A stretch of DNA of 39,149 nucleotides from an uncultured Bacilli bacterium (GTDB lineage: Bacteria > Bacillota_I > Bacilli_A > RF39 > UBA660): assembly GCA_944358435.1 (NCBI GenBank), contig CALVRD010000005.1, forward strand, positions 1 through 39,149, written 5' to 3'. Each line of letters starts with the position of its first letter. The first letter of the stretch is position 1. Positions 33,019-38,011 of the stretch are shown here, piece by piece. Position numbers and translations under genes: made by a program. Under the pieces are notes generated by a model that made no database searches, was not told where the DNA came from, and was given only the letters and a program-made list of their open reading frames with translations.

Positions 33019-33051
33019 AAAAATCACAGTATTCTAAAAACTGTGATTTTT
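33019..33051 (+). terminator. Terminator of the PRPP-synthetase gene
   Basis: AAAAATCACAGT (33019-33030) pairs with ACTGTGATTTTT (33040-33051); A/T-symmetrical, so it may work from both sides. Confidence 0.92.
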
Positions 33052-33054
33052 AAC

Positions 33055-33090
33055 AAACAAAAAAACATAATCCTGACAAAATCATGTTTT
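33055..33090 (-). terminator. Minus-strand terminator for the 33.2-33.4 kb RNA
   Basis: On the minus strand AAAACATGAT (33090-33081) pairs with ATTATGTTTT (33071-33062, one G-U), and the T run continues to 33059. It would end a minus-strand transcript coming from the promoter at 33443. Confidence 0.7.
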
Positions 33091-33187
33091 CGAGTTTTTA
33101 AAATGGAAAACTACAAAGTAATTAATTATCTACACCGTTTCTTGATACAATTATGTATCCAAGAAACATAATAATTCAAATTACAAA

Positions 33188-33408
33188 ATCTAAGTAAATG
33201 TCAGTACCTAGACGTAGCACCCTATTAACTGTGAGTTGCATCTCTCACTACGTACGCACCCTTAGATAGTAATAGGATATAGCCAAAGCTCATCACTCAA
33301 CTAACTTTCCAACGGCTTTCGCTAAAACAATAGCTATCGACCAACCAACCCAGCAATGCAATACGATACGCATAAACACGCCTGTCGATTATATTTCATA
33401 TCTAAGTT
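33188..33408 (-). ncRNA. Candidate structured noncoding RNA, about 220 nt core
   Basis: No protein frame fits here on either strand, but the G+C content is clearly above the flanks and long-range complementarities are many (plus-strand positions): 33384-33390 with 33336-33341; hairpin 33356-33373; 33315-33324 with 33280-33289 (9 of 10 pairs); 33270-33276 with 33221-33227 (7 bp) enclosing hairpin 33244-33248/33231-33235. Two crossing pairs are possible: 33248-33253 with 33212-33217, and 33261-33267 with either 33400-33406 or 33188-33194. GCGAAAGC, a stable GNRA-type loop, appears only in the minus sense. A minus-strand promoter ends seven bases before the start and a terminator lies at 33055-33090; a 12-bp hairpin at 33137-33167 lies between. 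It lacks tmRNA, RNase P and SRP landmarks. The family is unassigned. Confidence 0.62.
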
Positions 33409-33414
33409 AATATC

Positions 33415-33443
33415 ATAATATCATATAGTTAAGAGTAGTGCAA
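33415..33443 (-). promoter_or_regulatory. Strong minus-strand promoter of the ncRNA
   Basis: Minus strand: TTGCAC (33443-33438), exactly 17 bases, TATTAT (33420-33415) preceded by TGA, an extended -10. Predicted start near 33408. Confidence 0.78.
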
Positions 33444-33589: not shown

Positions 33590-34179
33590 ATTACTGCAAG
33601 CATGGTAGCCAAATATGTATAGTTCCTTAACTATATTAAGATAATTATACACTTGACAGCAGTATAATTAATAACTTAGTCAACGTTATTAAAGAAGTAT
33701 GTAAAAATGGATACAAGGTGCTATTATTTAGTAATTTTAAAACTGTTATTGATAGAGTAAAAAATGTATTTGATAATAATATTACTAGTTATGCCATTGA
33801 TGGAAAGATATAAAGCAAGAGAAGACAAGAATAGGTTGATAAGTTTAATACAAATGATACTAACGTATTTTTAATAACTTTAAAAGCTAAAGATACTGGA
33901 ATTAACTTATCTTGTGCCGATATAGCAATTCATTTAGATATGTGGTGGAATCCATAGATTAAACATCAAGCAACTGATAGAACCCATAGAATTAGACAAA
34001 AAATGTAGTAGAAGTAATCAAATTTATTATCAAAAAAACAATTGAAGAACGTAGTGTTAAACTTCAAGAAAAAACGTAGGCTAAGGGATCAAATAATTGA
34101 AGATGGAGATAGAAATAAAAATTTTATTTCTAAACTTACAGTTGATGATATTAAGAAATTGTTATCATTTGAAAAATAA
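33590..34179 (+). pseudogene. SNF2-family helicase, decayed C-terminal half
   Basis: The plus strand reads as the second RecA-like domain of a SNF2/Swi2 helicase, broken by several stops and at least two frameshifts. Pieces in order: DNYTLDSSIINNLVNVIKEV, GYKVLLFSNF, then VDKFNTNDTNVFLITLKAKD, TGINLSCADIAIHLDMWWNP, then TAG, IKHQATDRTHRIRQ, a frameshift, VVEVIKFIIKKTIEER, a second frameshift, DQIIEDGDRNKNFISKL and VDDIKKLLSFEK to TAA. The RecA-like DRxHRIxQ motif is recognisable. The N-terminal half is gone. This is an old pseudogene. Confidence 0.85.
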
Positions 34180-34346
34180 GAATAGCTATGTTAATTAAAA
34201 TATAGATAAATTATATTTTTGATCATAGCGTAAAAAAAGCAATAATTAGAAAATAAAATTATACTATGCTAAAAAACATAATTAAATTAATAATAAAGTT
34301 AAAGAACCAATTTAAATTCCTTTCATATCATAGTATAGGTGATAAA

Positions 34347-36724: not shown

Positions 36725-38011
36725 ATGAGTTTAAATTATGCAATATTTAGAAGTGAGCCAATTTATACTTTACAAGATTTAGCACAAATAGGATCACATA
36801 ATAAAAGGGAGAAGAAAGCATATAATTCTAATCCTAATATAAAAATACAATTAGCAAAGAATAATATAGAATTAGTGCCCTTAACAGACAAATATGTTAA
36901 GGGCTTTTATAATTTGACTGAAGAATATAGAAAAGAACATGATGAAAGAATGAAAACAGAACGAGAAGATAGAAAAAAGACATTTAATCAAATGTTAAAT
37001 AAATCCAAAAGTGTAGTAGCTGATGAACTACTATTTACTGCTACTCATAATTTTTTTAATAATATGACAAAAGATGATATTAAAAATTGGGCAGATACTT
37101 GTATGGAGTTCGTATATGAAGATTTAGGATATACAAAAGACCAAGTACTACATGCAACTGTTCATTTAGATGAAGAGACACCTCATCTTCATTGTGTTGT
37201 TGTACCACTTGTCAAAAAGTATGATAAAAGAACAAATACTGAAAGGTTTACTATATCAAAAAAACAATATATTAAAGATAAAGTTCATTTATCAGAATTA
37301 CAAGATAAGTATTATAAAAGACTAACTGATAAGGGTTATGATTTGGAACGTGGAATTAAAGGTAGTAATGCACAACATCAAAATGTAAAAGAATTAAAGA
37401 AAACTACAAAGTATTATGAGAATAAAGTAAGTGCTTTAGATAAAAAATTAGACAATGCTATAAATAATTTTGAATCTAAAATGCAAACAACTAAAAATAT
37501 TTTATTTGCTAAAGAATATGTAAAAGTTAAAAAGGATACTTTTGATTCTATGAACAAGGTTATTACAGAATCTAAAAAAATTATGGAATTTCAACCTAAA
37601 TTAGATGATTTATTTTCTGAAGTTAATGAATTTACTAAAAGCCATAAATCATTAGAAACAGAAAATAAAAAACTTCAAAAAGAAGTTAAAGCACTTATTA
37701 CAAAGAATAAAAGTTTATCAGATGAAAATAACAAACTAAAAAACTATATAGATACTATTCTAATGGTAATCAAAAATTTTTTTAGGAAAGTTTTACAATA
37801 TGGAAATGAAATTATAAAAGCAGAAACTGTTTTTGAAATAAAAAAATGTTATGATAATAACCAATTTGATATGGAAGATGTATTTAAAATATCTAAAGGT
37901 ACTTCAAAAGAAGATGAAATATTTGATTATGCAAATATTCCTGATTATTTGAGGTCTAGCAAAAAGAATTACGATCATAGGAAAAAGAAAGATAATGATT
38001 TATCTAGATAA
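36725..38011 (+). CDS. mobV: MobV-family relaxase (Mob/Pre)
   Basis: A 428-residue plasmid-mobilization relaxase. The hallmark VHLDEETPHLHCVVVPL lies near residues 141-157; the H-x-D-E-x-T-P-H-x-H core binds metal, and the N-terminal part opens MSLNYAIFRSEPIYTLQDL. In MobM, an N-terminal His or Tyr region attacks oriT; here R9/H25 are nearby. Residues 220-390 are a long coiled coil (DKKLDNAINNFES, ENKKLQKEVKALITKNKSL). GAGAGGATT precedes the ATG. It should nick the oriT-like site at 38984-38993 and transfer the module with a helper element. Confidence 0.92.
   Translation: MSLNYAIFRSEPIYTLQDLAQIGSHNKREKKAYNSNPNIKIQLAKNNIELVPLTDKYVKGFYNLTEEYRKEHDERMKTEREDRKKTFNQMLNKSKSVVADELLFTATHNFFNNMTKDDIKNWADTCMEFVYEDLGYTKDQVLHATVHLDEETPHLHCVVVPLVKKYDKRTNTERFTISKKQYIKDKVHLSELQDKYYKRLTDKGYDLERGIKGSNAQHQNVKELKKTTKYYENKVSALDKKLDNAINNFESKMQTTKNILFAKEYVKVKKDTFDSMNKVITESKKIMEFQPKLDDLFSEVNEFTKSHKSLETENKKLQKEVKALITKNKSLSDENNKLKNYIDTILMVIKNFFRKVLQYGNEIIKAETVFEIKKCYDNNQFDMEDVFKISKGTSKEDEIFDYANIPDYLRSSKKNYDHRKKKDNDLSR

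What the first reader, a model, noticed from the sequence alone, without database searches (positions are those of the whole stretch)
33188..33408. Minus-strand structured RNA with possible pseudoknots, unassigned
A 220-nt stretch without any protein frame has a well-formed minus-strand promoter (TTGCAC-N17-TGA-TATTAT... with an extended -10), a downstream minus-strand terminator, and at least six complementary segments of 5-10 bases. Two of them cross others (33248-33253 with 33212-33217; CTTAGAT at 33406-33400 or 33194-33188 with 33267-33261). The last offers two alternative partners for one strand, as in a switching RNA. I recognise no tmRNA, RNase P, SRP or 6S landmarks. In size and pseudoknot content it resembles large riboregulators such as the raiA motif RNA, but I cannot claim that identity.
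Basis: partly seen in the sequence, partly recalled or inferred. Interest (0 to 1): 0.85.

Follow-up and report, generated by a model that had tools for sequence, protein, structure and literature searches.

The report
Dimer-forming stand-alone bacterial structured RNA
The spot holds a real, stand-alone RNA gene of about 350 bases, a distant relative of the little-known 'PGK RNA', and comparison with over a hundred relatives suggests that these RNAs work in pairs, two copies (or two sister RNAs) sticking together through a short matching sequence that keeps changing yet always stays matched.

Summary
The minus-strand RNA is real and larger than reported: about 33409 to 33058 (~350 nt), with its own promoter and an intrinsic terminator. 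It is a divergent relative of Rfam RF03040 'PGK RNA' (window 24.8 bits, cut-off 50.8; intermediate relatives pass). Rfam describes 92 nt and labels it cis-regulatory.

Covariance models built here found 108 matches in the host's family; with a scan of named genomes this gave 157 distinct cores (119 representatives).

The comparison adds elements missing from the Rfam alignment as printed here: a long-range helix P1 forming a pseudoknot with P4; a covarying kissing loop between the P6 loop and the terminator loop; and, between P1 and P5, a palindrome whose sequence changes while staying self-complementary to its centre. Adjacent bases covary, so the pairing must be between molecules. Fourteen non-palindromic members have a nearby sister RNA, mostly with an exactly complementary segment.

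I conclude that it is a trans-acting RNA working as a homodimer (heterodimer in one subclass). What the dimer does is unknown.

It is not raiA. No experiment supports this yet.

The parts
33438..33443 (-). -35 element TTGCAC
   Evidence: sequence; CTTGC kept in all three species of the genus
33415..33423 (-). extended -10 element TGATATTAT, 17-nt spacer to the -35
   Evidence: sequence; in relatives a TTG-N-TANNWT promoter-like site lies just upstream of the P1 5' strand
33058..33409 (-). whole RNA gene, about 350 nt (5' end inferred from the -10, 3' end from the T-run)
   Evidence: conserved block in the 3-species alignment; sequence model R1 covers 33059-33416
33399..33406 (-). P1 5' strand CTTAGATA
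   Evidence: covarying long-range helix, cross-pair control
33279..33398 (-). 5' domain, highly variable in size between genera; contains ATCGAC (33389-33384) / GTCGAT (33341-33336)
   Evidence: near-invariant in the genus, so no covariation test; size varies in relatives
33270..33278 (-). P4 5' strand ATCCTATTA
   Evidence: changes on both sides in all 9 pairs of this helix over 106 distinct rows (this alignment was fitted to the model)
33261..33268 (-). P1 3' strand TATCTAAG, inside P4, so P1 and P4 form a pseudoknot
33249..33258 (-). self-complementary dimer element UGCGUACGUA (UACGCGCGUA in the two sister species)
   Evidence: duplex -12.4 kcal/mol in the window, no stable hairpin
33231..33248 (-). 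P5 hairpin GUGAG-AGAUGCAA-CUCAC
   Evidence: 97.6% of cells of the inner four pairs paired, changes on both sides in three of those four pairs
33219..33227 (-). P4 3' strand TAATAGGGT
33190..33211 (-). P6 hairpin CUAGGUA-CUGACAUU-UACUUAG
   Evidence: 7 of 7 pairs covary, 96.2% of cells paired
33199..33204 (-). kissing-loop strand CUGACA in the P6 loop
   Evidence: CTGATAA/TTATCAG in 69 and CTGACA/TGTCAG in 16 representatives, 3 swapped
33118..33184 (-). 3' domain: stem GTAATT (33184-33179)/AATTAC (33123-33118) around hairpin 33167-33137
   Evidence: two compensatory U-A to C-G changes in the hairpin within the genus; this domain is not found in all relatives
33062..33090 (-). intrinsic terminator hairpin; its loop carries the other kissing strand UGUCAG (33078-33073); T-run 33065-33059

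Best explanation
Shown by sequence comparison: a stand-alone RNA gene related to RF03040, with pseudoknot P1 x P4, hairpins P5 and P6, a covarying kissing loop between the P6 loop and the terminator loop, and a conserved self-complementary strand between P1 and P5. Inferred mechanism: the transcript folds so that the P1/P4/P5 junction holds the palindrome open. Two molecules then pair through 8-14 bp of palindrome to form a homodimer, and the P6-terminator kiss fixes the 3' end (within a molecule, or as a second contact between molecules). In one subclass the two partners are different RNAs, A and B, encoded near each other. They pair through complementary strands, and B carries the UUAUCAG that matches A's P6 loop. 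The dimer most likely acts in trans as a structural or protein-binding RNA, comparable in kind to OLE. Its cellular task is not known.
For: Homology: window genus to G026/L020 at E 6e-16; L020 and nine other loci pass the RF03040 cut-off; model R3 finds 107 matches in 88 of 386 family genomes. Helices: P4-P5-P6 with 461 cells changed on both sides, 159 expected, 0 of 500 shuffles as high; P1; kissing loop contingency 69 / 16 / 3 swapped. Dimer: self-complementary run of at least 12 nt in 60% of 119 representatives against 6.6% shuffled, with seven neighbouring 22-nt windows of the same RNAs at or near background. Choosing the centre by the outer arms only, the central 4 nt are self-complementary in 65 of 102 against 17% in shuffles. 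No complement to the palindrome elsewhere in the same RNA beyond shuffles (8.33 and 8.33). Within the genus the centre changes from CGCG to GUAC. Heterodimer: 14 non-palindromic A units have a same-strand B unit, mean complement 10.7 bp with the own partner against 6.9 with others; all 14 B units carry TTATCAG. Two paralog pairs have mutually complementary elements. Against cis-regulation: the downstream gene is same-strand in 70 of 87 and the upstream gene in 69 of 82, and downstream genes are diverse.
Against: No transcript or dimer has been measured. The window fails the formal Rfam cut-off. The dimer stays inferred from covariation; whether the kissing loop is within or between molecules is open. 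About ten non-palindromic members have no partner found in the sequence held. The B units were picked partly by complementarity, and several A/B pairs are related, so the 14 are not independent and the own-versus-cross comparison is biased upward. The 5' domain has no covariation support. Family representatives are not phylogenetically independent (CAATTG types are probably inherited). R3 finds a match in only 23% of family genomes, so the RNA is not universal or the model misses divergent ones.
Confidence: 0.8

Rival explanations
1. A cis-regulatory leader (the Rfam label): an attenuator whose terminator is opened or closed by a ligand through the P6 loop, controlling the next gene.
For: Promoter, aptamer-like fold, terminator and a same-strand gene at a median of 64 nt in 70 of 87 representatives; some members lie before a gene that by its sequence looks like phosphoglycerate kinase (L041, L071), the likely source of the name. 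The terminator loop does pair with the core.
Against: In the window and its sister G001 the downstream gene is the convergent prs; in G002 it is a convergent protease gene. 17 of 87 representatives have an opposite-strand gene, and the upstream gene is same-strand just as often (69 of 82), as expected from general co-direction. Downstream genes are unrelated. A leader would not need a palindrome or a sister RNA.
Confidence: 0.1
2. The palindrome is a DNA operator or restriction-related site inside the gene, not an RNA contact.
For: Perfect DNA palindromes of 8-16 nt, often with core CAATTG or TGATCA.
Against: About twenty different core hexamers occur, five different elements within genus g44 alone (L050, L052, L110, two in L124); position is fixed next to the P5 stem; G-U pairs are tolerated; non-palindromic members have a complementary partner RNA.
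Confidence: 0.04
3. The palindrome forms a small hairpin within one molecule and its symmetry is incidental.
For: A 12-nt palindrome could form a 4-bp stem with a 4-nt loop.
Against: Nine of nine palindromes tested give no stable hairpin but strong duplexes. The central four bases, which would be the loop, are self-complementary in 64% against 17% expected.
Confidence: 0.04
4. One reading: the ATCTAAG strand alternates between two CTTAGAT copies.
For: Both copies exist in the window and are invariant in the genus.
Against: Across the family the second pairing is close to controls (40%, against 32% and 26%); the second copy is the covarying 3' strand of P6.
Confidence: 0.02

Closest known systems
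PGK RNA, Rfam RF03040
   Same: P4, P5 and P6 in the same order and spacing; relatives in the same bacterial family pass its cut-off; best match by bit score at relaxed threshold over the window core.
   Different: The window scores 24.8 bits against a cut-off of 50.8. Rfam holds 92 nt and calls it cis-regulatory; the Rfam structure line shown lacks P1, palindrome, kissing loop, terminator and 5' domain. The original description (Weinberg and colleagues, from memory) was not in the held library, so I cannot say which of these it mentions.
OLE RNA (homodimer)
   Same: Dimer contact inferred from covariation of adjacent bases in a palindrome: OLE L9.3 switches between GGCC, GAUC and AGCU (PMC12286853).
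   Different: No sequence or structural relationship was found here; the element here is 8-14 nt between helices, not a hairpin loop; no protein partner is known.
GOLLD and ROOL RNAs
   Same: Large bacterial RNAs with intermolecular kissing loops (PMC12286853).
   Different: Those are larger 14-mers and 8-mers; no match here.
raiA motif RNA
   Same: Size class, pseudoknots, stand-alone RNA in Bacillota (from memory).
   Different: No raiA match at E up to 10; raiA is reported as a monomer, 205 nt in the construct studied (PMC12286853).

Membership tests
PGK RNA (RF03040) | score at or above the curated cut-off of 50.8 bits | tested here: not met
   window 24.8 bits, E 1.5
PGK RNA (RF03040) | helices P4, P5, P6 in order, with the P6 loop motif | tested here: met
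   A14 counts, window aligned over the full R3 model
PGK RNA (RF03040) | homology to accepted members through intermediates | tested here: met
   window genus to L020 E 6e-16; L020 51.4 bits with RF03040
PGK RNA (RF03040) | cis-regulation of a downstream gene (Rfam type) | tested here: not met
   convergent downstream gene in the window; orientation statistics
raiA motif RNA | match to the raiA covariance model | tested here: not met
   no raiA match at E up to 10
tmRNA, RNase P, 6S | match at this locus | tested here: not met
   no match here; found elsewhere in the genome, the 6S candidate 1 bit under its cut-off
homo-oligomeric RNAs (OLE, GOLLD, ROOL type) | covarying self-complementary contact at adjacent bases | tested here: met
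homo-oligomeric RNAs (OLE, GOLLD, ROOL type) | oligomer observed by mass photometry or cryo-EM | not testable with these tools
   needs experiment

The most novel reading that the evidence does not exclude
A bacterial RNA family whose quaternary pairing evolves like a lock-and-key code: most members are homodimers with fast-changing palindromes (paralogs in one genome often carry different ones), and one subclass has become a heterodimer of two separately encoded RNAs joined by two complementary contacts.
Probability: 0.6. Interest if true: 0.88.

Novelty: new variant of a known kind. Interest (0 to 1): 0.78.

Why it matters
Natural RNA oligomers with evolutionary support are few (OLE, GOLLD, ROOL). 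This would add a family found in many genera of uncultured gut Bacilli, with a short, simple and directly testable dimer element, and a heterodimeric branch for which I know of no precedent outside RNA-RNA regulation. It also corrects the picture of RF03040 from a 92-nt cis element to a whole RNA gene, and gives the boundaries needed to express it, probe it and look for its protein partners.

Tried and rejected
Rfam at cut-off on the window (nothing). BLAST of the RNA against phage and plasmid records (one weak match and none) and against 193 family genomes (only the genus). Five pattern hits in viral contigs gave no R3 match, so there is no sign of a phage origin. R1 matches L022-L028 and R2 matches L044, L045, L055 were judged chance (in coding sequence or lacking the elements). 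MAFFT alignment of distant members failed, and one search had one row in the wrong orientation, so covariance models were used. RF03040 itself run on the own genome did not list the window among its weak matches. Partner search for the TGTAAC-type members with one fixed pattern found no new partner for them. The literature search for the PGK motif found nothing in the held library.

Full report
What is there. The minus strand carries TTGCAC, a 17-nt spacer and TGATATTAT (33443-33415), then about 350 nt without an open frame, ending in a hairpin with a T-run (33090-33059). Both other held species of the genus have the RNA at 89-90% identity over about 380 nt and 93-94% over the core, while neighbouring intergenic DNA does not align well. 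In G001 it lies beside prs as in the window; in G002 prs is not between the RNA and the protease gene, and an IS30-like reading frame lies on the other side. So the RNA is not tied to prs.

What it is not. The window has no Rfam match at cut-off. At relaxed threshold the core matches PGK RNA, RF03040, with 24.8 bits against 50.8. tmRNA (C16) and RNase P class B (C12) of the same genome lie elsewhere; a 6S candidate on C14 scores 45.4 against 46.4.

Finding the family. A sequence-only model (R1) of the three genus copies found a second genus at E 6e-16 and a third at 0.007. A structured model of P4-P5-P6 (R2) reached about twenty genera. Rfam on those loci shows ten of them above the RF03040 cut-off, one of which, L020, is the closest outside relative of the window. 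A broader model, R3, gives 107 matches in 88 of 386 genomes and 38 of 150 genera of the family, and in a class-wide sample of 395 genomes only genomes of this family match. Named records are uncultured gut Bacilli, Tenericutes, Bacillales and Erysipelotrichaceae MAGs from rabbit, goat, rumen and other guts (contig lengths link several to the G handles; links G026 and G001). Viral contigs gave no true match.

Secondary structure. P4, P5 and P6: 90.6% of cells paired, 461 cells with changes on both sides against 159 in shuffles, collapse when slid by one column (the alignment was fitted to this structure, which favours it). P1 joins the first bases of the transcript to a strand inside P4, a pseudoknot: at least 8 bp in 80% of 115 representatives, 29% with swapped partners, 19% shuffled. 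The P6 loop matches the terminator loop: CTGATAA with TTATCAG in 69, CTGACA with TGTCAG in 16, a GACT type with AGTC or TTGTCA in 11, three swapped between the first two types (scored by motif presence in the downstream 420 nt). Estimated length of 67 members is 227-619 nt, median 313; the 5' domain accounts for much of the variation.

Dimer element. Directly 5' of P5 lies a palindrome: window UGCGUACGUA, sister species UACGCGCGUA, others such as UAUGUACAUA, UUUGCGCAAA, AUGUUCGAACAU, AUAUGGCCAUAU, UUACAAUUGUAA. Over 119 representatives, 60% have 12 nt or more (6.6% in shuffles), and seven control windows in the same RNAs are at or near background; the 30 representatives that came from the pattern scan, which was chosen on P5 and P6 only, show 43% against 7%. 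The centre itself is kept self-complementary (65 of 102 against 17%), and adjacent bases cannot pair within one chain. The same argument was used for OLE and GOLLD (PMC12286853). No partner for the palindrome is found elsewhere in the same RNA. Palindrome and kissing loop occur together (92 of 94 with, 13 of 25 without; Fisher p 4e-8; relatedness not corrected).

Heterodimer subclass. Members without a palindrome prompted a prediction, that a partner RNA carries the complement. In two genomes (G036, G170) the two paralogs are reverse complements over 11-12 Watson-Crick bases. In 14 other loci a same-strand sister unit with a modified P5 (AAGAAGGAAAACTT or GGGAAGGAAAACCC and the like) lies 170-2100 nt away and complements the A element over 8-13 bp (own mean 10.7, cross 6.9; candidates were picked partly by complementarity). 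All 14 sister units carry TTATCAG, the match for A's CTGATAA loop, while A's own terminator lacks it wherever B does not follow within 420 nt. Where read in full (L136, L250, L126) both units have their own promoter-like site, and B has its own loop-terminator match (AATGATT/AATCATT, AATGACA/TGTCATT). Where A and B are only about 180 nt apart (L194, L200, L232) they may share one transcript. About ten non-palindromic members have no partner in the sequence held.

Mode of action. Downstream genes are diverse and their orientation bias equals that of the upstream genes, so I favour a trans-acting RNA over cis-regulation. Homodimer formation is inferred, not shown; its task in the cell is not known.

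Noticed in passing
L136, L126, L250, L113, L125, L127, L131, L132, L153, L200, L232, L255, L101, L194: Tandem or nearby A/B pairs of related RNAs with complementary dimer elements; B has a modified P5 and carries UUAUCAG.
   Followed up: partly
L138 (three copies), L124, L080, L092, L103, L105, L192, L244 (two copies each): Several copies of the RNA in tandem; the palindromes are alike in some arrays (AUGCAU core in L138) and different in others (CUAG and UCGA centres in L124), perhaps to keep paralogs apart.
   Followed up: partly
L106, L107, L108, L117, L121, L137, L185: Members with a conserved (C/U)UGUAAC strand in place of the palindrome and no UUAUCAG terminator; no partner RNA found.
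   Followed up: partly
window 33022-33047: A second inverted repeat between prs and the RNA's terminator, probably the terminator of prs.
   Followed up: no
window 33600-34180: Interrupted reading frames that look like a decayed helicase (by eye).
   Followed up: no
window 36725-38011: A MobV-like relaxase frame (by eye), suggesting a mobile element beside the locus.
   Followed up: no
L015 (G000 C14:8467-8649): Likely 6S RNA of this genome, 45.4 bits against a cut-off of 46.4.
   Followed up: no
L009 1716-2372: IS30-like reading frame (by eye) next to the RNA in G002, where prs is missing from between the RNA and the protease gene.
   Followed up: no
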